IMG/VR virus record: IMGVR_UViG_3300023296_001598
Span: 1-54,950 of that record
From: a virus
Strand: one strand, 5' to 3'
DNA: 54,950 nucleotides
Position 1 is the first letter of the stretch, and every line of letters begins with the position of its first letter. Shown one piece after another: positions 9,230-52,674 of the stretch. Position numbers and translations under genes: made by a program. The notes under the pieces were generated by a model. The model saw nothing but the letters and a program-made list of their open reading frames with translations. It was not told the origin of the DNA and ran no database searches.

Positions 9230-9963
9230 AAAAGTGTTCTAAATGTAGGAATGAAAAGCCAGCTGAACAGTTTGGTAAAAACAAATCTGCAAAAGACGGT
9301 AGGCAGTTTTGGTGTAAGTGTTGTCGAAAAAAACGATACGAGCAGAATCGATCAAGCATTCTTGCAGAAGCACATGAACGTCGATGGCCCAATGGGAAAC
9401 CAGAAGTAAGTACAAGGATTAAGAATATCACAGGTCAAAGATTTGGCAAACTTATGGCTGTTTCGATGACAAATAACAGGCAGCCTGATGGTTCAGTCGT
9501 TTGGCGGTGCAAGTGTGATTGTGGAAACGAATGTGAAGCTCCTGGAGTATATTTGAGGTCTGGCAAGAAGAAATCATGCGGCTGTTTGTTTCTTGAGTTT
9601 TATGAGAAACAAGGAAAAAGGTACAAGGAAATAAGTGGTGCATTTTGGTGCAGCTATAGAAATCATGCCAAACAACTTGGAAGAGAGTTCTCCATAACCA
9701 TGAAAGAAGCATGGAAAATTTGGGAGAACCAAAATGGGTACTGTGCACTTTCTGGAGTAAGGCTCAGCTTTGCCCAGTGCTCTGCAAAGGGCGGGTTTAA
9801 GCTCCAAACAGCTTCAATGGACCGAATAGATTCAACCCAGGGCTATTTCAAAGAAAATATTCAATGGGTTCATAAGGAGATAAACCTTATGAAGCAAACA
9901 CACACCGACGAAAAATTTATTGAGTGGTGCAACGTAGTTGCAGCATTCCAGGAGACAAAATGA
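9226..9963 (+). CDS. HNH homing endonuclease inserted at the NAMPT start
   Basis: A 245-residue protein. It begins with a zinc-finger-like CSKC...C..CC region, then a central WRCKCDCGN...KSCGC module typical of phage homing nucleases, and ends with an HNH-type core (CALSGV, then SMDRIDSTQGY and NIQWV). It is flanked by 70-bp direct repeats of the NAMPT 5' end. Its stop overlaps the ATG of the restored NAMPT gene (ATGA), so it is co-translated with both neighbours. It probably cuts NAMPT alleles lacking the insertion and spreads by recombination. Confidence 0.88.
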   Translation: MKKCSKCRNEKPAEQFGKNKSAKDGRQFWCKCCRKKRYEQNRSSILAEAHERRWPNGKPEVSTRIKNITGQRFGKLMAVSMTNNRQPDGSVVWRCKCDCGNECEAPGVYLRSGKKKSCGCLFLEFYEKQGKRYKEISGAFWCSYRNHAKQLGREFSITMKEAWKIWENQNGYCALSGVRLSFAQCSAKGGFKLQTASMDRIDSTQGYFKENIQWVHKEINLMKQTHTDEKFIEWCNVVAAFQETK

Positions 9964-10009
9964 AAATCCTACCAAATAGAAGATACCACAAAACTCCGAG
10001 ACCCCTTAG
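9940..10009 (+). repeat. 70-bp direct repeat, copy 2 (functional NAMPT 5' end)
   Basis: This copy is identical to 9138-9207. It supplies a fresh AGGAGA ribosome-binding site and the first codons of the intact NAMPT frame, so the insertion does not inactivate the gene. Confidence 0.95.
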
Positions 10010-11549
10010 ATCCGACGCCTATACGGTTTGTGGCTATACTTTTGAAAGTGCTGAGGCAACGGAGCAGTCAAAGTATTATGGAATGTTCCGCAAGTTTCCC
10101 CACCGCCACGAGCCAACTTATAGCCCTGCCGACGAACGTATTGTTTTCGCTGGACTACAGCCGCTCGTAGACCAACTTTTCTACGAACCAATCACACATG
10201 AGGAAATCGACGAAACGGTTGCCTTCCTGAAGGGTCGCAAGGTCAAAAACGATGGAACATTTGCAGACTTTGAGTTTCCCGAGGCGTTGTGGCGGCGGGT
10301 GGTTGATGAAAAGGGGGGCTGGCTCCCTCTTCGAGTTGAGGGCATGCCTGAAGGCTCCGTGGTCTACCCACATGAGCCTTTCCTGCGAGTGACAGCGACC
10401 GAGACAGGGTTCGGGCCTCTTGTTCCTTGGTTTGAGTCGACACTTCTTCACGTGTGGGCTGCAACTGAGCGTCTCACGGCTGCAAGACACTTTTTGAAGC
10501 ATACCTTTGAGTTGATTCGTCGGTATGAGCCTGAAACGGTCTCAGACGAGGAATGCCTGTTTTTTGCCCGTGTAATGATTCACGATTTTGGTGATCGTGC
10601 AGGTGCTTCTCCGATGGAGTCGGAACTTGTAAGCCGAGTGCACAACTACGTTTGGTTTGGCACGGATACTTTCCGAGCAGCTTACCAGAACTGGAAAAAC
10701 GGCGCCCCTGCGGCCTTCGGGTCATCCGTAAAGGCCCTTGCTCACCGTATTGTTCAAGGGTATGCTGAGGAAACGGATTGTTACAATACAATGTACCACT
10801 CAGCAGACGGCAACGAGCTACTTAGCATGGTTGGTGATTGTTATGATTACTGGAGCGCCCTGGAGAAGGACCTTATTCCTCTGGCACTCAAGGCTAAAAA
10901 CAGTGCGACCGATAACGCAAATACCATTGTTGCCCGACCCGATTCTGGTGATTCAGTTGACATGGTTCTTGGAACGCTCCAACGAGCGCATGCCGCTGGC
11001 TTGATGGAGGACCACCTGTGTGCAGATGGTATTACTCGTCATGTAGCAACAAACCTTCGTTACATTGTCGGGAACGGCGAGTCGTTTGATTCGGTTCTTC
11101 AAATCACAAACGCCGCCCTCGATGCTGGGTTCGTGCCTTGGCGTTGTGGAATTTATGGTATTGGTGGACACCTGCGAAACAACATCAACCGAGACCATAT
11201 GAGTACAAAGTTTGCTCTTTGTGCCGTCGGTGAAGACGAACGCCCTGTCATCAAGCTGAGCAACACACCTGGGAAACAAACACTCCCTGATTGCCATGTG
11301 CTCCGAGATGACATCGCTCTTACAACTGGTGTTACACTTGTGACTCCAGGTGAAGTAGGGGTGGATGCTTTGGTCACCTACTATGACGGTTCGCTTGAGG
11401 AACCTTTTGGCTCTGGGTTCACAGATGACTTTTTGACTTGCGAAGCTAGAGTTGTTCGTGAATTCGATGAAATGCCGCTGACTGGCGGGAAGCGTTCTGA
11501 ACTGCTTCAGGGCCAGGTTGAACATCTAATCGAACACTATCGAGGATAA
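9960..11549 (+). CDS. nadV: Nicotinamide phosphoribosyltransferase (NAMPT/NadV)
   Basis: A 529-residue enzyme converting nicotinamide and PRPP to NMN, the first step of NAD salvage. Family motifs include ARPDSGD with a following hydrophobic helix, GNGESFDSVL and FALCAV. It has the usual single-chain length of about 490-530. The start is ATG 9960, not the upstream in-frame codon, because AGGAGA lies directly before it and the N-terminus equals the displaced copy at 9158. It heads an operon with CinA-like and NMN adenylyltransferase genes. Phage NAD salvage is known as a counter to NAD-depleting immunity. Confidence 0.95.
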   Translation: MKILPNRRYHKTPRPLRSDAYTVCGYTFESAEATEQSKYYGMFRKFPHRHEPTYSPADERIVFAGLQPLVDQLFYEPITHEEIDETVAFLKGRKVKNDGTFADFEFPEALWRRVVDEKGGWLPLRVEGMPEGSVVYPHEPFLRVTATETGFGPLVPWFESTLLHVWAATERLTAARHFLKHTFELIRRYEPETVSDEECLFFARVMIHDFGDRAGASPMESELVSRVHNYVWFGTDTFRAAYQNWKNGAPAAFGSSVKALAHRIVQGYAEETDCYNTMYHSADGNELLSMVGDCYDYWSALEKDLIPLALKAKNSATDNANTIVARPDSGDSVDMVLGTLQRAHAAGLMEDHLCADGITRHVATNLRYIVGNGESFDSVLQITNAALDAGFVPWRCGIYGIGGHLRNNINRDHMSTKFALCAVGEDERPVIKLSNTPGKQTLPDCHVLRDDIALTTGVTLVTPGEVGVDALVTYYDGSLEEPFGSGFTDDFLTCEARVVREFDEMPLTGGKRSELLQGQVEHLIEHYRG

Positions 11550-18270: not shown

Positions 18271-18283
18271 TAACGATACTTTT

Positions 18284-18367
18284 GCCCAGGTGATGTAATT
18301 GGCAGGCATGGGAGATTCAAAATTTCCTGCTCGAAAGAGCGTGCGGGTTCGAGTCCCGCTCTGGGTA
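18284..18367 (+). tRNA. tRNA-Leu (CAA)
   Basis: An 84-nt class II tRNA. The acceptor GCCCAGG pairs with TCTGGGT (two G-U pairs) and the discriminator is A. The anticodon stem GGAGA/TTTCC carries loop TTCAAAA with anticodon CAA. The long variable arm is GCTC-GAAA-GAGC, and the T arm is GCGGG/CCCGC with TTCGAGT. No CCA is encoded. It reads UUG codons. Confidence 0.92.
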
Positions 18368-18376
18368 TTTGCTCTT

Positions 18377-18450
18377 GGCTCAGTGCGCTAATCGGCAAAG
18401 CGGTTAGACTTAAAATCTGATGAGTGTCGGTTCGAATCCGACCTGAGCTA
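18377..18450 (+). tRNA. tRNA with UAA anticodon (Leu codon UUA), class I shape
   Basis: A 74-nt cloverleaf. The acceptor is GGCTCAG/CTGAGCT with discriminator A, and the D stem is CGCT/AGCG. The anticodon stem TTAGA/TCTGA carries loop CTTAAAA with anticodon TAA. The variable loop is only 5 nt (TGAGT), and the T arm is GTCGG/CCGAC. Bacterial tRNA-Leu normally has a long variable arm, so its charging identity is uncertain. No CCA is encoded. Confidence 0.85.
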
Positions 18451-18500
18451 CTGCTATAATCTTAATTCAACCTTCAACACTAGATAATTCCCGTAAGTCA

Positions 18501-23744: not shown

Positions 23745-24269
23745 ATGGTGGGTAGAACTAAAAGAAACGATAAGGTAGGCAAACCCAGGTGCTGCAAAAA
23801 ATCAAATGGAACAAAGTGTTGGTACCTGGATGACAAGTTGCACAGGACCGATGGTCCTGCTCACGTACGTGCTGATGGAACAAAACGTTGGTACCTGAAT
23901 GGTCAGAGACACAGGACCGATGGTCCTGCAATCGTACATGCTGATGGAAGGAAATGCTGGTACCTGGATGACAAGTTGCACAGGACCGATGGTCCTGCTA
24001 TCGAGTGGCCTGATGGAACAAAACATTGGTACCTGGATGACAAGTTGCACAGGACCGACGGTCCTGCTATCGAGTGGCCTGATGGAACGAAATACTGGTA
24101 CCTGGATGACAAGTTGCACAGGACCGATGGTCCTGCAATTGAGCGGGATGATGAAACGAAGAGCTGGTACCTTTTCGGAAGAAGGTACGAAGACTTGGAG
24201 CTTTGGAGGGTAACCTCCGAGATATTCGCTTATTTATTCCCTAAATTTGAAAATGGGTTTAGAAACTAA
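23745..24269 (+). CDS. MORN-like repeat protein, array 1
   Basis: A 174-residue protein with five 23-residue repeats of the type WYLDDKLHRTDGPAIE..DGTK and a conserved C-terminal module (WYLFG..YEDLE.WRVTSE, then a hydrophobic end). It resembles the MORN_2-type repeats found in giant viruses and phages. The repeats probably form a beta-hairpin solenoid that binds a partner. Four paralogues exist in this window (29991, 38550, 38849, 52120). The function is unknown. Confidence 0.8.
   Translation: MVGRTKRNDKVGKPRCCKKSNGTKCWYLDDKLHRTDGPAHVRADGTKRWYLNGQRHRTDGPAIVHADGRKCWYLDDKLHRTDGPAIEWPDGTKHWYLDDKLHRTDGPAIEWPDGTKYWYLDDKLHRTDGPAIERDDETKSWYLFGRRYEDLELWRVTSEIFAYLFPKFENGFRN
23820..24165 (+). repeat. 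69-bp tandem repeats, array 1
   Basis: Five units of 69 bp are conserved at DNA level. Each contains an inverted repeat built on CAGGACC-GAT-GGTCCTG. Confidence 0.9.
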
Positions 24270-26253: not shown

Positions 26254-26282
26254 TTCACAACGTGGTCCAGGTGTGCTATTAT
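26254..26282 (+). promoter_or_regulatory. Promoter giving a leaderless ligase mRNA
   Basis: TTCACA at 26254-26259 and TATTAT at 26277-26282 are 17 bp apart, with an extended TG. The -10 ends 5 nt before ATG 26288, so the predicted transcript begins at or near the start codon. Confidence 0.7.
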
Positions 26283-26287
26283 AGGGT

Positions 26288-27082
26288 ATGTCGACATTCA
26301 CAGTAATAGTTGAGCGTGTGCTCATTTACTGCCATCCACAGGCAGATAGGTTGGAAATTGCGCAAGTGGGTGATTACCAGTCGGTCGTTGGAAAGGGGAC
26401 TTTCCAAACAAACGATCTTGTAGCCTATATTCCTGAACAAGCGCTCGTGCCACAAAATCTCCTAGCGGAGATGGGGCTTGAGGGTCGGCTCGCAGGTAAG
26501 GACAAAAATCGTGTGAAGGCTGTTCGTCTTCGTGGCGTCGTGTCCCAAGGCCTCTGCTACCCTGCACGTGAAGAGTGGCAAGAGGGTGCTGATGTCACCG
26601 AGGCGCTCGGCATCACCAAGTGGGAGCCGCCGATCCCCACACATCTTGCTGGGGAGGTGTTCAATGCAGGCCAGAATCGTACTCTCAAGTATGATATCGA
26701 AAACTACCGACGATTTCCCGACGTCCTTCAGGACGGTGAACCCGTCGTTTTCACAGAGAAACTTCATGGGTGTCTTCACGAAAACAGTTTGGTGACGATG
26801 CCAGATGGAAATGAGCGCACAATCGCAGAGGTGGTTGCAGATGAGACTATCGATAGTGTTTGGTCATACAATGAAGACACTGACGGATATGTTGTCAGGC
26901 CAATTACTGGTCGCATGCGACGTGCGAACAGCGAAGAAAAAAAATGGGTTAGGTTGACTATGGAAAATGGACGAGAGCTAGTTCTTACAGAAGATCACCC
27001 AGTTTATTCACGTGATCGCAAAGACTGGGTCAAGGCAGGCGAAGTTCGCCCCGAAGAAGATATTGAAAGCCCGATCATGTAG
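26288..27082 (+). CDS. RNA ligase (Rnl5-like) N-half fused to N-intein
   Basis: A 264-residue protein. Residues 1-161 are the ligase N-extein: an OB-fold-like module (about 1-100) as in the Deinococcus Rnl5 family, then a nucleotidyltransferase start ending with motif I EKLHG, catalytic K158. Residues 162-264 are an N-intein, with Cys162 as first residue, the block A-like CLHENSLVTMPDG and block B-like LTEDHPVYS. Joined to the product at 27881 it would give a 367-residue ligase. Its mRNA appears leaderless. Confidence 0.85.
   Translation: MSTFTVIVERVLIYCHPQADRLEIAQVGDYQSVVGKGTFQTNDLVAYIPEQALVPQNLLAEMGLEGRLAGKDKNRVKAVRLRGVVSQGLCYPAREEWQEGADVTEALGITKWEPPIPTHLAGEVFNAGQNRTLKYDIENYRRFPDVLQDGEPVVFTEKLHGCLHENSLVTMPDGNERTIAEVVADETIDSVWSYNEDTDGYVVRPITGRMRRANSEEKKWVRLTMENGRELVLTEDHPVYSRDRKDWVKAGEVRPEEDIESPIM
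26771..27079 (+). other. Split intein, N-terminal half (103 aa)
   Basis: It begins at the Cys codon 26771 directly after the KxHG motif of the ligase and ends at the gene's stop. The splicing blocks at its start and near its end (TxxH-type EDHP) are present; there is no endonuclease domain inside. Confidence 0.85.
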
Positions 27083-27102
27083 CACGTTCCGTGCAAACGA
27101 AC

Positions 27103-27894
27103 ATGCTTATTTACATGAGTAAATCAACGATAAAAGAGTATAAGTGTGCTGACTGTAAAGTGGCAATGTTTTACCCCTTTCACAGGGTAAGAAAACGTAT
27201 AGAAAATGGCATCTCAATACGGTGTAAATCATGTGCGCAAAAAAGAGCAGCTAGAAATCGTTCGCCAGAAGCGGCAAGGGCCATTCAAGAAGGTAGAAAA
27301 AGAGCTGCAAAAAAAATACACAATGTTCCTAAGTCAGTTCGAATTGAAAGAGCCAGTAAAGCTGGGCAAGGAAACAGAAACAATAACGGGTTAGCTGTTC
27401 GGCGGCAATGGGAAACGATAAAATCAGACGAAAAACGATACAAGCAAGCTTGTGAAAGATTAAAGCAGACAGCACTAAATTTCCATGCGTCGATGAGTGA
27501 GGAAGAAAAAAAGCTTCACTACGCTAAGGTTTTCAAGAATACTGGAAAGTCCAAAGCGTGCGAATTATTTTTGCAGGCAGTCGAAACTAAAACTAAGCGA
27601 AAAATTCTTCGTAAGAAAATGGTTTCTGGTTTCTTTGTAGACGGAATGTTCGACGAACAAGAAATCATACTAGAATTTTATGGAGATATGTTTCATTGTA
27701 ACCCAATAAGGTTTAATGATCCGAATAAATACTGTTCTTGGATTTCCAGGACCGTTGGCCAACAATGGAAAAGAGATGAAAGGCGTATAGTTGCCTTACT
27801 CAAAAACGGATATAAGGTTTTGATTGTTTGGGAATATGATTGGATCAACCAAAGCGAAGAAGTGGTAAAAAGGATAAAGAATGCGTTGTCTTAA
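27103..27894 (+). CDS. Free-standing Vsr/EDxHD-like homing endonuclease between intein halves
   Basis: About 263 residues from ATG 27103 (GTG 27091 and ATG 27115 are in frame). The N-terminus has a C-x2-C...C-x2-C zinc finger (CADC, CKSC), and the middle is basic. The C-terminal domain, with DGMFDEQEIILEFYGDMFH and later KNGYKVLIVWEYDW, has the Vsr-like nuclease fold reported for homing enzymes linked to split inteins. It overlaps the C-intein gene by 14 nt. It probably spreads the whole intein cassette by cutting intein-free ligase genes. Confidence 0.8.
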   Translation: MLIYMSKSTIKEYKCADCKVAMFYPFHRVRKRIENGISIRCKSCAQKRAARNRSPEAARAIQEGRKRAAKKIHNVPKSVRIERASKAGQGNRNNNGLAVRRQWETIKSDEKRYKQACERLKQTALNFHASMSEEEKKLHYAKVFKNTGKSKACELFLQAVETKTKRKILRKKMVSGFFVDGMFDEQEIILEFYGDMFHCNPIRFNDPNKYCSWISRTVGQQWKRDERRIVALLKNGYKVLIVWEYDWINQSEEVVKRIKNALS

Positions 27895-27988
27895 AGTCGA
27901 ATATATTGAAAGTGACAGTGATTTGTACGATCTTGAGATCGACGGCGGGGGCAATAACTACATTGCTGAAGGTGTTGTGGTTCACAAC
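27881..27988 (+). other. Split intein, C-terminal half (36 aa)
   Basis: The 36 codons from the start codon to the Asn codon at 27986-27988 are typical of natural C-inteins (about 35-40 residues). The next codon is Thr, a valid +1 residue. Confidence 0.85.
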
Positions 27989-28609
27989 ACCTGGTGCATG
28001 GTCGGGCTTGTGCCCAGGCACATGGGGCACCCCGAGGAGGGTCGACTCATTGTCTCATCCAAAGGTTTGGCAACTCGTGGCCTTGCTATGAAATACGATG
28101 CCGAGGCAAACAAAACAAATCTATATGTTCGTGTTGCTCGACACCATACTTTGGAAAATCGTATCAGTTTCGCTTTCGGTCGTGTTCTCAAGGACGAAGA
28201 GAACCCTCGCCCTGTGTACATCGTGGGCGAGATTTTCGGCGGTGGAGTTCAAGATCTCGCTTATGGTGCGAAGGCTGATAAGGACGTCGATATTGGGTTT
28301 CGTATTTTTGATGTGTATATTGGAGCGCCTGGCCAGGGTCGTTACCTGAACGATGCTGAGTTGGACGACGCTTGCAAAAGGCTTTCGATTCCCCGAGTAC
28401 CTGTTCTTTATCGTGGTCCGTTCTCTAAGGCAGCGATGTTGGAACATACCGACGGCTGTGAGACAATCACTGGCCAAGATACCCACATCCGTGAAGGCAT
28501 TGTTGTTCGTCCACAGGTGGAGCGCAGAAATGAGCAAATTGGACGTGTTCAGCTCAAGAGTGTGAGCGGGGCCTACCTGGTACGAAAAGGCGGGACTGAG
28601 TTTAACTGA
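27881..28609 (+). CDS. C-intein fused to RNA ligase C-half
   Basis: A 242-residue protein. Residues 1-36 are the C-intein, with block F-like LYDLEIDGGGNNYIAEG and block G-like VVVHN ending in Asn36. Thr37 is the +1 nucleophile and begins the C-extein (TWCMVG), which completes the ligase motif KxHG-T. The rest holds the later nucleotidyltransferase motifs (YIVGEIFGGGVQDL, EGIVVRP, VQLKSVSGAYL). ATG 27881 has AAGGA upstream. Splicing in trans with the 26288 product is predicted. Confidence 0.85.
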   Translation: MRCLKVEYIESDSDLYDLEIDGGGNNYIAEGVVVHNTWCMVGLVPRHMGHPEEGRLIVSSKGLATRGLAMKYDAEANKTNLYVRVARHHTLENRISFAFGRVLKDEENPRPVYIVGEIFGGGVQDLAYGAKADKDVDIGFRIFDVYIGAPGQGRYLNDAELDDACKRLSIPRVPVLYRGPFSKAAMLEHTDGCETITGQDTHIREGIVVRPQVERRNEQIGRVQLKSVSGAYLVRKGGTEFN

Positions 28610-28611
28610 GA

Positions 28612-28632
28612 GAAGGGACCAATGGTCCTTTT
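28612..28632 (+). terminator. Intrinsic terminator after the RNA ligase
   Basis: A short hairpin AAGGGACC-AAT-GGTCCTT is followed by further T residues, three bases after the ligase stop codon. It is the clearest factor-independent terminator in the window. Confidence 0.7.
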
Positions 28633-29990: not shown

Positions 29991-30560
29991 ATGAACAACA
30001 AGCCAGATGAACCTGCGTGCAGGGAAGAGAACAATAGGTCCAAACATTGGTACCTGAATGGCAAGAGACACAGGACCGACGGTCCTGCCCTTGAATATCC
30101 TGATGGAGAGAAACGTTGGTTTCTGAATGGTAAGTTGCACAGGACCGATGGTCCTGCTGTTGAAAGACCTGATGGAGTAAAGCATTGGTACCTGGATGAC
30201 AAGTTGCACAGGACCGATGGTCCTGCAATTGAGCGGGATGATGAAACGAAGGAGTGGTGGCTGAATGGTAGTCGACACAGGGCGGACGGCCCTGCTATCG
30301 AGCATGCTGATGGTTCGAAGGAATGGTTCTTGAATGGTAAGATGCACAGGACCGATGGTCCTGCTGCCGAATATGCTGACGGAACGAAACATTGGTGCCT
30401 GAATGGTAAGTTGCACAGGACCGATGGTCCTGCTTGCGAGTATGCTGACGGAACGAAATATTGGTGCCTTTTCGGAGAACGGTACGAAGATTTGGAAGTC
30501 TGGAAGATAACCTCCGAGATGCTTGTCCTCCTGTTCCCTGGAATCGAGAGCGAAGAATGA
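29991..30560 (+). CDS. MORN-like repeat protein, array 2
   Basis: A 189-residue paralogue of the array 1 protein with six 23-residue repeats and the conserved end module (WCLFGERYEDLEVWKITSE). A 66-nt stretch, 30186-30251, is identical to 24096-24161 in array 1, evidence of recent exchange. One repeat has HRADGPA instead of HRTDGPA, with compensating changes in the DNA palindrome. Confidence 0.8.
   Translation: MNNKPDEPACREENNRSKHWYLNGKRHRTDGPALEYPDGEKRWFLNGKLHRTDGPAVERPDGVKHWYLDDKLHRTDGPAIERDDETKEWWLNGSRHRADGPAIEHADGSKEWFLNGKMHRTDGPAAEYADGTKHWCLNGKLHRTDGPACEYADGTKYWCLFGERYEDLEVWKITSEMLVLLFPGIESEE
30042..30470 (+). repeat. 69-bp tandem repeats, array 2
   Basis: Six 69-bp units, each with the CAGGACC-type palindrome. 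The fourth unit reads CAGGGC and GCCCTG in its arms. Confidence 0.9.
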
Positions 30561-36476: not shown

Positions 36477-37799
36477 ATGGGCTTTGGATATCAGGTCACG
36501 CACACGTCTGAAACAGCTCTAGCTGAGTCTGAAGGCGCAGAAGTACAACTGGCAGGTCGGGTCGTTTTTTGGCGAAAGCTGGGGAAGGTGGCGTTCGGAA
36601 AGCTGGCTGATTCAGAGGGTGTCATTCAGTTCTCTTTCAACATGCGAGAGACACCTAACACTTACAAGGAGTGGGTAAAGTCTATCAAGATGGGCTCGCT
36701 TATTGCTATTTCAGGACAGATGTGGACTTCAAGCACAGGCGAGTTTACTGTCTTGGTTGATACAGACTTCATGGCGCTGCGCCATTCAATGCACCCTTTC
36801 CCCAACAAGTGGGCTGGGATTGTTGACCCCGAATTGAAGCTCCGTAAGCGCTACCTCGATATCGCCCTTGACCCTGAAGTAAAGCGACGCTTTAGGTTGC
36901 GAAGTCAACTAATTTCGTTCATGCGGCTCTACTTGGACACGCAGAACTTCATGGAAGTGGAGACCCCAGTTCTTTCGCCGAGTGCATCTGGGGCTCAGGC
37001 AAAGACTTTTGTTACACACCACAATGCCTTGGGCGCATACCTGCATATGAGGATTGCACCTGAAACCTATCTCAAGAGGACAGTTGCAGCAGGCTTCGAC
37101 CGAGTTTTTGAGATAGGCAAGCAATTCCGCAACGAAGGCATGGACCCCTCCCATCTCCAGGAGTTTACATCTGTGGAGTGGTATGCGGCCCATTGGGATT
37201 ACAAAGACAATCTACAGTTTTTTAATGGGCTGCTAAAGGGAATTTTTGAATTCTGCCTTCCTAAGGATGGAGCCGACGAAACTACCTACATTCTAAACTA
37301 TCAGGGAGTAGAGCTAGATTTCAGTGACCCCCCTGTCAAAACCTATCAAGAAGTCTGTCTTGAGCTGGGAGGATTTGACCCATTTGAGTTGGATGACTGG
37401 AAGGAGGTTGACGAACGTTTCAAGGCCGAGGTGCGACCGAAGCTCATTCAGCCGATTTACTTGGTTGATTATCCTGCCCACATGAGCCCGTTGGCCCATC
37501 GCTCAGAAGATGGGAAGACAGTTGAACAGTGGCAGTTTATTGTCAACGGTTGGGAGCTTGTAAAGTGCTACACGGAGCTTACCGACCCCGTTCTTCAGCG
37601 TCAGCTACTTGAGGAACAGATGGAGGCTCGTGGTGCTGGTGATGACGAGGCCATGATGCTTGAGGAAGACTTTCTTGAGTGTATGGAATACGGCATGCCG
37701 AACATGAGTGGTTTAGGAATGGGAATTGACCGCTTGGTCGCTCTTTTGACTAACCAAACGTCGCTGCGTGACGTTGTGCTATTTCCCACCGTTCTATAG
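36477..37799 (+). CDS. lysS: Lysyl-tRNA synthetase (class II)
   Basis: A 440-residue class II LysRS. An N-terminal OB-fold anticodon-binding domain (about 20-105) is followed by LRKRYLDIAL, motif 2 (RNEGMDPSHLQEFTSVEWY) and motif 3 (GLGMGIDRLVALLTNQ). Cellular enzymes are about 490-510 residues, so it is compact. It charges tRNA-Lys, and no tRNA-Lys lies in the window. It could resist host changes to LysRS or make dinucleotide alarmones; both are inference. Confidence 0.93.
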   Translation: MGFGYQVTHTSETALAESEGAEVQLAGRVVFWRKLGKVAFGKLADSEGVIQFSFNMRETPNTYKEWVKSIKMGSLIAISGQMWTSSTGEFTVLVDTDFMALRHSMHPFPNKWAGIVDPELKLRKRYLDIALDPEVKRRFRLRSQLISFMRLYLDTQNFMEVETPVLSPSASGAQAKTFVTHHNALGAYLHMRIAPETYLKRTVAAGFDRVFEIGKQFRNEGMDPSHLQEFTSVEWYAAHWDYKDNLQFFNGLLKGIFEFCLPKDGADETTYILNYQGVELDFSDPPVKTYQEVCLELGGFDPFELDDWKEVDERFKAEVRPKLIQPIYLVDYPAHMSPLAHRSEDGKTVEQWQFIVNGWELVKCYTELTDPVLQRQLLEEQMEARGAGDDEAMMLEEDFLECMEYGMPNMSGLGMGIDRLVALLTNQTSLRDVVLFPTVL

Positions 37800-38549: not shown

Positions 38550-38852
38550 ATGTTCTTGGACGAGCTAAGAGAGACTAAACCGCATTGTATCGAGTACTCC
38601 GACGGAATGAGGCGTTGGCTTTTGGGCTATAAATTGCACAGGTCTGATGGCCCTGCTGTTGAATATCCTGATGGTTCAAAGTTTTGGTACCAAAACGGTC
38701 AATTACACAGGACCGATGGTCCTGCTATCGAGTATATTTGTGGTTATCATGGCTGGTATCTTTTCGGAGAACGGTACGAGGATTTGGAAGTCTGGAAGAT
38801 AACCTCCGAGATGCTAATCCTTCTGTTTCCTGGATTCGGGAGCGAAGAATGA
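38550..38852 (+). CDS. MORN-like repeat protein, array 3 (short)
   Basis: A 100-residue member of the family with only two full 23-residue repeats and the conserved end module (YEDLEVWKITSEMLILLFPG), nearly identical at DNA level to the end of array 2. It overlaps the next array by ATGA. The first repeat has HRSDGPA. Confidence 0.75.
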   Translation: MFLDELRETKPHCIEYSDGMRRWLLGYKLHRSDGPAVEYPDGSKFWYQNGQLHRTDGPAIEYICGYHGWYLFGERYEDLEVWKITSEMLILLFPGFGSEE

Positions 38853-39478
38853 GCAGCAAGTCAGATGAACCTGCGTGCATTGAATATCCTGATGGAACGA
38901 AAGAATGGTGTCAGAATGGTAAATTGCACAGGACCGATGGTCCTGCTATCGAGTGGCCTGATGGAACGAAAGAATGGTGTCAGAATGGTAAATTGCACAG
39001 GACCGATGGTCCTGCTATCGAGTGGCCTGATGAAGAGAAGTCTTGGTACCTGAATGGTAAAAGGCACAGGACCGATGGTCCTGCGATTGAACGTGCCAAC
39101 GGAACCAAACATTGGTACCTGAATGGTCAGAGACACAGGACCGATGGTCCTGCGGTTGAACGTGCCAACGGAACAAAACGTTGGTACCTGAATGGTAAAA
39201 AACACAGGACCGATGGCCCTGCGATTGAATACCCTGATGGAACGAAAAAGTGGTACTTAAATGATAAGAAACACAGGACCGATGGTCCTGCTAACGAGCT
39301 TTCGAATGGAGCAAAGCTTTGGTATCTAAATGGTAAGAGACACAGGACCGATGGTCCTGCAATTGAATATCCTGACGGTTCAAAGCATTGGTATCTTTTC
39401 GACAAAAAGTACGAAGATTTGGAGGTCTGGAGAGTAACCTCGGAGATACTCACTTGCTTGTTTCCAGCCCTGAAGTAA
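38849..39478 (+). CDS. MORN-like repeat protein, array 4
   Basis: A 209-residue protein starting MSSKSDEPACIEYPDG with seven 23-residue repeats and the end module (YEDLEVWRVTSEIL). The ATG at 38849 overlaps the array 3 stop; the frame upstream of it is not used. The first two repeats are near-identical (WCQNGKLHRTDGPAIEWPD), suggesting recent duplication. Confidence 0.8.
   Translation: MSSKSDEPACIEYPDGTKEWCQNGKLHRTDGPAIEWPDGTKEWCQNGKLHRTDGPAIEWPDEEKSWYLNGKRHRTDGPAIERANGTKHWYLNGQRHRTDGPAVERANGTKRWYLNGKKHRTDGPAIEYPDGTKKWYLNDKKHRTDGPANELSNGAKLWYLNGKRHRTDGPAIEYPDGSKHWYLFDKKYEDLEVWRVTSEILTCLFPALK
38902..39388 (+). repeat. 69-bp tandem repeats, array 4
   Basis: Seven units of 69 bp. The first two are almost identical at DNA level, consistent with slippage or unequal exchange. 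Confidence 0.9.
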
Positions 39479-52119: not shown

Positions 52120-52674
52120 ATGAACAACAAGTCAAATAAACCTGTGTGCCTCGAAGACAACACTGGAACCAAGCGTTGGTACCTAGGTACCAACTTGCAC
52201 AGGACCGATGGTCCTGCCCTTGAATATGTTAATGGCTTGAAAAAATGGTTTCAGAATGGTAGGTTGCACAGGACCGATGGTCCTGCAATTGAAAAAGCTG
52301 ATGGAACCAAACATTGGTATCTGGATGACAAGTTGCACAGGACCGATGGTCCTGCAATTGAAAAAGCTGATGGAACCAAACATTGGTATCTGGATGGTCA
52401 GAGACACAGGACCGATGGCCCTGCTACCGAGCTTTCGGATGGTTCGAAGGAATGGTTTCTGGATGATAAAAGACACAGGACCGATGGTCCTGCGGTTGAA
52501 TGTTTTGATGGAACCAAACATTGGTATCTAAATGGTAAGAAACACAGGACCGATGGTCCTGCTGTTGAATATCGTGGTGGAACAAAGTGTTGGTACCTTT
52601 TCGGAGAAAAGTACGAAGACCTGGAACTTTGGAGAGTAACCTCGGAGATGTTCACTCAACTGTTTCCTGAATAA
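52120..52674 (+). CDS. MORN-like repeat protein, array 5
   Basis: A 184-residue paralogue with six 23-residue repeats and the end module (YEDLELWRVTSEMF). AGGTGA four bases before ATG 52120 sets the start. Two adjacent repeats (IEKADGTKHWYLD) are near-identical in DNA. The N-terminus MNNKSNKPVCLED matches array 2. Confidence 0.8.
   Translation: MNNKSNKPVCLEDNTGTKRWYLGTNLHRTDGPALEYVNGLKKWFQNGRLHRTDGPAIEKADGTKHWYLDDKLHRTDGPAIEKADGTKHWYLDGQRHRTDGPATELSDGSKEWFLDDKRHRTDGPAVECFDGTKHWYLNGKKHRTDGPAVEYRGGTKCWYLFGEKYEDLELWRVTSEMFTQLFPE
52176..52594 (+). repeat. 69-bp tandem repeats, array 5
   Basis: Six 69-bp units with the CAGGACC/GGTCCTG palindrome, two of them near-identical. Confidence 0.9.

What the first reader, a model, noticed from the sequence alone, without database searches (positions are those of the whole stretch)
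26254..28632. RNA ligase split by a trans-splicing intein with a homing endonuclease gene between the halves
The 26288 product ends an Rnl5-like ligase at its catalytic KxHG motif and continues into an N-intein (Cys162 onward). The 27881 product starts with a 36-residue C-intein ending in HN and resumes the ligase at Thr37. Between them lies a free-standing Vsr/EDxHD-like nuclease. This is the fractured-gene layout known from environmental phage sequences (Dassa et al. 2009), for helicase, IMP dehydrogenase and ribonucleotide reductase genes; I do not recall an RNA ligase case. The predicted spliced ligase is 367 residues.
Basis: partly seen in the sequence, partly recalled or inferred. Interest (0 to 1): 0.9.

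Follow-up and report, generated by a model that had tools for sequence, protein, structure and literature searches.

The report
RNA ligase split by mobile intein
In an uncultivated phage, the gene for an RNA-repair enzyme is cut in two exactly behind its catalytic motif; each piece carries half of a self-splicing protein element that should rejoin the enzyme, and a DNA-cutting gene that probably spreads the element sits between them: a known kind of arrangement, here in an enzyme for which I found no published case and which several different elements have invaded at the same spot.

Summary
Confirmed. Window 26288-28609 encodes a two-piece Rnl5/DRB0094-type RNA ligase. The first ORF holds ligase residues 1-161 (ending at motif I, EKLHG) plus a 103-residue N-intein. 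The second starts with a 36-residue C-intein and resumes at Thr. One ligase model covers both pieces without a gap. The gene between encodes a Vsr/EDxHD-type nuclease whose best structural match is the homing endonuclease I-Bth0305I. A second assembly has the same layout. This is the 'fractured gene' arrangement (Dassa et al. 2009), a known kind; I found no report of an RNA ligase host. New from comparison: the same junction is invaded in other phages by split inteins with such an endonuclease, with a decayed one, with DNA-methylase genes instead, and by ordinary LAGLIDADG inteins (including in cultured mycobacteriophages). Rnl2-type ligases carry split inteins with the same endonuclease family at the equivalent motif. 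Close relatives are uninterrupted and the intein is scattered on the ligase tree, so the element moves horizontally. Splicing, cleavage and ligase activity were not tested. New member of a known kind.

The parts
26288..26770 (+). N-extein: RNA ligase residues 1-161 (OB domain and start of the nucleotidyltransferase domain)
   Evidence: TIGR02306 model 3-179 and PF21189 OB domain; NgrRnl structure match
26759..26770 (+). Motif I K-L-H-G with the catalytic lysine K158; intein insertion point directly behind it
   Evidence: Alignment with uninterrupted ligases, EKLHG|T
26771..27082 (+). N-intein, 103 residues from Cys1, and stop codon
   Evidence: TIGR01445 3e-9, PF01079, PF14890; split-intein structure match
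27115..27894 (+). Free-standing Vsr/EDxHD-type homing endonuclease gene, 259 aa (GTG at 27091 is an alternative start)
   Evidence: Vsr profile, PHROG homing endonuclease, I-Bth0305I fold match, relatives
27881..27988 (+). C-intein, 36 residues ending His-Asn; its start overlaps the end of the endonuclease gene by 14 nt
   Evidence: TIGR01443 1e-4, PF14890; AAGGA upstream
27989..28609 (+). C-extein: RNA ligase residues 162-367, starting at Thr+1, and stop codon
   Evidence: TIGR02306 model 179-341, PF09414

Best explanation
A phage Rnl5-type (DraRnl/NgrRnl-like) ATP-dependent RNA ligase gene has been invaded, exactly behind catalytic motif I (E-K-L-H-G | T), by a split intein with a free-standing EDxHD/Vsr-type homing endonuclease gene between its halves. 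The two ligase pieces are translated separately. The N- and C-intein associate, Cys1 starts an acyl shift, Thr+1 accepts the N-extein, the terminal Asn cyclises, and a 367-residue ligase with an intact EKLHGT motif results. Neither piece alone can be an active ligase, because the adenylated lysine is in one and the other catalytic motifs are in the other. The endonuclease is predicted to cut the intein-free motif I sequence in other phages, so that repair copies the whole cassette. Shown by sequence or model: the anatomy, family assignments, identical site in relatives, intein-free relatives, scattered distribution. Inferred: splicing, cleavage target, ligase activity.
For: One ligase model covers both pieces, 3-179 and 179-341. 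Intein models match at both junctions and the N-half model matches both NgrRnl and Npu DnaE split-intein structures. Cys1, TEDH, penultimate His, terminal Asn and Thr+1 are present. The nuclease matches I-Bth0305I and Vsr by fold. Close relatives keep EKLHGT uninterrupted, and 141 of 165 related ligases scored as full-length have T or S at the would-be +1 position. Split inteins at the same junction occur in other phages: L046/L047 with endonuclease, L078/L114 with a 49-aa endonuclease remnant (51 bits; best of 500 shuffles 9), L149, L117. The intein is scattered on the ligase tree: 7 changes for 7 inteins, at least 5 forced by well-supported branches. Intein and extein identities disagree: window-L046 exteins 61%, inteins 28%; L046-L149 exteins 40%, inteins 49%. 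A relative of the nuclease lies between the split-intein halves of DNA polymerase in Campylobacter phage CP21, and that split intein splices in vitro (PMC12707363).
Against: No biochemical evidence here. The block F histidine common in inteins is Asn in the window (GGGNNYIAEG), as in L078; from my own knowledge other inteins tolerate this, but it could slow splicing. The window intein is a long branch, at most about 36% identical to any other found. The endonuclease ATG has no obvious ribosome-binding site. The cleavage site is unknown.
Confidence: 0.88

Rival explanations
1. Decayed element: the endonuclease gene broke the intein and the ligase is now a pseudogene whose halves no longer splice.
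For: Block F His is missing and the intein is divergent; no splicing assay exists.
Against: All three ORFs are intact and keep catalytic residues of ligase and intein although the ligase is only 61-62% identical to its nearest relatives; L046, L078, L117 and L149 keep the same two-ORF form over long divergence.
Confidence: 0.06
2. The middle gene is removed at RNA level (group I or II intron) and the gene is not trans-spliced at protein level.
For: Endonuclease genes are often carried by introns.
Against: No Rfam intron match in the window. Both flanks of the middle gene are coding intein sequence with separate stop and start; if only the middle were removed, the result would still be an intein-containing protein.
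Confidence: 0.02
3. Regulatory split: the phage uses the two-piece ligase as a switch, keeping the enzyme off until both pieces accumulate.
For: The break separates the catalytic lysine from the other motifs; split inteins outlive the endonuclease in L078 and possibly L149.
Against: Scattered distribution with close uninterrupted relatives fits a selfish element; no sign of separate regulation, since the genes are consecutive and overlapping.
Confidence: 0.04

Closest known systems
Fractured genes of Dassa et al. 2009 (NAR 37:2560; not held in the library, known to me and through citations)
   Same: Gene split by a split intein with a free-standing EDxHD/Vsr-type homing endonuclease gene between the halves; break at the usual endonuclease insertion point, N-intein of about 100 aa and C-intein of about 36 aa
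   Different: Host gene is an ATP-dependent RNA ligase, interrupted behind the catalytic lysine motif; the reported hosts, as I recall them, include helicase, IMP dehydrogenase and ribonucleotide reductase genes
Campylobacter phage CP21 PolB split intein with CP21_248 between the halves; splices in vitro (PMC12707363)
   Same: Same layout, and the middle gene is homologous (36% over 99 aa)
   Different: Host gene is DNA polymerase; intein uses Ser1 and Ser+1; the inteins are only about 22% identical
Pseudomonas phage MIJ3 PolB split intein (PMC6892783)
   Same: Split intein with an endonuclease gene between the halves in a cultured jumbo phage
   Different: DNA polymerase host; the endonuclease is described as HNH family
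Contiguous intein in the RNA ligase of mycobacteriophage Phoebus gp158 and relatives
   Same: Intein at the same point, QKLHG | C...HN | S, in a phage RNA ligase
   Different: One chain with a LAGLIDADG endonuclease domain inside the intein; the record names only an RNA ligase
RtcB inteins (NCBIfam models NF038162 and NF052663, met)
   Same: Inteins in an RNA-ligating enzyme
   Different: RtcB is an unrelated GTP-dependent ligase (own knowledge); those inteins are contiguous

Membership tests
Intein (Hint, protein splicing) | N-terminal nucleophile, block B TxxH, C-terminal HN, +1 C/S/T | tested here: met
   Cys1, TEDH, VVHN, Thr+1; TIGR01445 and TIGR01443 matches
Intein (Hint, protein splicing) | Block F histidine (common, not universal, so not a defining residue) | tested here: not met
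   NNYIAEG where most relatives have HNFFANG
Intein (Hint, protein splicing) | Excises itself and ligates the exteins | not testable with these tools
   Needs co-expression and mass spectrometry
Fractured gene (split intein with free-standing EDxHD endonuclease) | Two separate ORFs with N-intein and C-intein, endonuclease gene between, same orientation | tested here: met
Fractured gene (split intein with free-standing EDxHD endonuclease) | Intein-free homologues exist, so the element is an insertion | tested here: met
   L003, L013, L014, Nannocystis and others are uninterrupted
EDxHD / Vsr-like homing endonuclease | Vsr-type fold with conserved acidic residues and His | tested here: met
   I-Bth0305I and Vsr are the top fold matches; D176, E187, D191, H194, D221 are at least 90% conserved in 32 relatives
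EDxHD / Vsr-like homing endonuclease | Cuts the intein-free allele at a long specific site | not testable with these tools
   Needs a cleavage assay
Rnl5 / DRB0094 RNA ligase | N-terminal OB domain followed by a nucleotidyltransferase domain with motif I KxHG/KxDG | tested here: met
   TIGR02306 over both pieces (each piece alone, 138 and 106 bits, is below the whole-protein cut-off of 151); K158, H160, G161, E242, K351 invariant in the alignment
Rnl5 / DRB0094 RNA ligase | Seals RNA nicks with ATP | not testable with these tools
   Needs an assay

The most novel reading that the evidence does not exclude
Motif I of phage ATP-dependent RNA ligases is a shared landing site: related split intein + EDxHD endonuclease cassettes have crossed between two ligase families (Rnl5-type, this window; Rnl2-type, L226/L240/L249) by targeting the conserved catalytic-lysine codons. 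Hints: the window endonuclease aligns over its full length with those in the Rnl2-type ligases L226 and L240 (E=9e-17, 7e-15) but only over the nuclease domain with those in L046 or L151; the window intein's nearest tree neighbours are L117, L226 and L249. The intein tree does not resolve it: grouping the window with these (p-AU 0.25) or with L046/L078/L149 (p-AU 0.096) is not rejected.
Probability: 0.35. Interest if true: 0.68.

Novelty: new member of a known kind. Interest (0 to 1): 0.52.

Why it matters
It adds an RNA-repair enzyme to the genes fractured by split inteins and places the break a few residues from the catalytic lysine, so splicing is all-or-nothing for activity. The set of relatives shows several stages at one site: empty, contiguous intein with LAGLIDADG domain, split intein with EDxHD endonuclease, split intein with decayed endonuclease, and split intein with DNA-methylase genes in the slot. 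That makes the origin and persistence of split inteins testable by comparison and by cleavage assays. Fast natural split inteins are also wanted as protein-ligation tools, and this gives several untested ones in two ligase families.

Tried and rejected
DNA-level search of the 50,697 phage records: no match. Single-protein scan with the endonuclease found only the twin contig; a profile scan was needed. RNA intron: no Rfam match besides two tRNAs. Assembly artefact: rejected by the 99.97% twin. Whether the window intein and those of L046/L078/L149 are one lineage: unresolved (p-AU 0.096). The intein-like extension of the L101 BLAST match beyond motif I was checked and is spurious; L101 is uninterrupted. 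The proposed endonuclease remnant in L149 is not significant by itself (6.9 bits against a best shuffle of 7.3), unlike that of L078 (51.2 against 9.1). Literature: searches for split inteins with RNA ligase returned nothing relevant, but the library lacks most subscription papers and Dassa et al. itself, so absence of a report is weak evidence.

Full report
WHAT IS THERE. Window 26288-28609 (+) has three consecutive ORFs. ORF 1, 26288-27082, 264 aa: residues 1-161 are the front of an RNA ligase (TIGR02306 RNA_lig_DRB0094, model 3-179, E=3e-40; PF21189 OB domain) ending EKLHG, the nucleotidyltransferase motif I; from Cys162 an N-intein of 103 aa follows (TIGR01445 3e-9, PF01079 7e-8, PF14890 4e-5). 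ORF 2, 27115-27894 (259 aa; GTG 27091 would add 8 aa) is a nuclease. ORF 3, 27881-28609, 242 aa: a 36-aa C-intein ending VVHN (TIGR01443 1e-4), then the ligase resumes at Thr (TIGR02306 179-341, 1.5e-30; PF09414 1.6e-19). The two ligase stretches meet at model position 179. Joined, they give 367 aa, alignable end to end with uninterrupted phage ligases, with the motif residues kept (K158, H160, G161, E242, the REG block, K351).

STRUCTURE. The AlphaFold model of the N-half (mean pLDDT 74; the unpartnered stretch 114-159 has low confidence) matches Naegleria RNA ligase (6vte, E=1.4e-7) with one part, and with the other the Npu DnaE split intein (4lx3, E=3.7e-3) and NrdJ-1. The nuclease model (pLDDT 86, most of the C-terminal domain above 95) matches the homing endonuclease I-Bth0305I (E=2.6e-4) and Vsr (3.8e-4) best. 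I-Bth0305I exemplifies the EDxHD family (PMC3943268).

NOT AN ARTEFACT. An IMG/VR contig of another record (3300022821_000020) is 99.97% identical over 10.6 kb with the same three ORFs. The window's own record is a 54,950-base virus record, possibly a fragment.

RELATIVES AT THE SAME SITE. A profile scan of IMG/VR found hundreds of related ligases, most of those examined uninterrupted; 141 of 165 scored as full-length have T or S right after motif I, so the +1 residue that splicing needs is already there. At exactly this junction: (a) L046/L047, split intein with a 300-aa EDxHD-type endonuclease; (b) L078/L098/L114, split intein with only a 49-aa C-terminal endonuclease remnant (51 bits; best of 500 shuffles 9); (c) L149, split intein with a 102-bp gap and a possible remnant too short to be significant; (d) L117, split intein whose gap holds a 252-aa ORF (HNH-like by eye, no family match), a C5 DNA methyltransferase (PF00145, 6e-71) and a domain of unknown family fused upstream of the C-intein; (e) L146, L152 and, in cultured phages, Phoebus gp158 and relatives: one-chain inteins with a LAGLIDADG-type endonuclease (LAGLIDADG_2 matched in L146 and Phoebus; by sequence in L152). 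L147/L148 carry a contiguous intein there whose reading frame is broken. L151 has a split intein with a Vsr-like endonuclease at another point (TDEER|C) of a related ligase.

RNL2-TYPE LIGASES. Scanning with the endonuclease profile and testing flanks with intein profiles built here showed 27 of 79 endonuclease loci with a C-intein just downstream (E<0.1) and 18 with an N-intein upstream too. Among them L226/L227, L240 and L249 are split at KLHG|C...HN|(T/S)N, in ligases of Rnl2 type (L249 C-half: TIGR02307, E=9e-6, nearly full length; L240 weak; L226 placed by similarity to these). The window's endonuclease aligns over its full length with those of L226 and L240 (9e-17, 7e-15) but only in the nuclease domain with L046 and L151. 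This suggests, but does not prove, that one cassette lineage crossed between ligase families at the homologous motif.

MOBILITY. On a ligase-extein tree of 77 rows the 7 intein bearers need 7 changes, no fewer than shuffled labels, and at least 5 are forced by well-supported branches (a quick tree). L046 pairs with intein-free L013 (support 96). Window and L046: exteins 61%, inteins 28%. L046 and L149: exteins 40%, inteins 49%. So intein and host gene have different histories, as expected for homing. The nuclease gene's GC (38.5%) is below the exteins' (52-53%), with the intein halves between.

EXPRESSION. The C-half start overlaps the end of the nuclease gene by 14 nt, with an AAGGA site inside that gene. 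L046 has the same kind of overlap, and the L078 remnant ends just before the C-half start. My inference: the nuclease tail is retained because it carries the ribosome-binding site of the C-half.

ANALOGY WITH TESTED SYSTEMS. In Campylobacter phage CP21 a homologous nuclease (CP21_248) lies between the split-intein halves of DNA polymerase. That split intein was expressed by others and splices with a half-time of about 36 s, about 40% of the N-precursor being converted (PMC12707363). Pseudomonas phage MIJ3 has a similar PolB arrangement (PMC6892783). These support splicing here by analogy only.

KNOWN OR NEW. The arrangement is that of the fractured genes of Dassa et al. 2009. The ligase host, the hot-spot character of motif I, and the range of states at one junction are what I did not find described, with the caveat that the literature held is partial. 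Overall: new member of a known kind, interest 0.52.

Noticed in passing
L117 4871-7745 (IMGVR_UViG_3300031227_000050): The slot between the split-intein halves holds an HNH-like ORF, a C5 cytosine DNA methyltransferase and an unidentified 175-aa domain fused upstream of the C-intein: possibly a restriction-modification system in place of a homing endonuclease.
   Followed up: partly
L229, L230, L235, L231, L259, L280, L281, L291: Split inteins with the same endonuclease family in what looks by motif like dUTPase (D-C...HN-C-x-Y-x-G); host gene not tested by profile.
   Followed up: no
L219-L221, L232, L234, L243, L254, L278: The same endonuclease family followed by a C-intein in other genes, with no N-intein found upstream: probably atypically split inteins with a short N-part.
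   Followed up: no
L116 3117-4004 and L035 2231-3118: Free-standing endonucleases of this family directly next to uninterrupted RNA ligase genes, upstream and downstream respectively: possible pre-invasion state.
   Followed up: partly
L051 2938-3966; also L121 and L217: Ligase genes broken at another point (ligase model about 92-107); in L051 by a GIY-YIG endonuclease gene, without intein sequences seen. Group I introns not checked there.
   Followed up: no
window 23745-24269, 29991-30560, 38684-39478, about 52120-52650: Several genes made of tandem repeats of the type WYLNGKxHRTDGPAIExxDGTK, about 75-85% identical at DNA level between copies; a similar gene lies just upstream of the split Rnl2-type ligase in L249 (2430-2786).
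   Followed up: no
window 36477-37799, 9924-11549, 18283-18451: By eye a lysyl-tRNA synthetase and a nicotinamide phosphoribosyltransferase-like gene; two tRNA-Leu genes found by ARAGORN. A large-phage gene set; with the RNA ligase this would fit tRNA repair.
   Followed up: no
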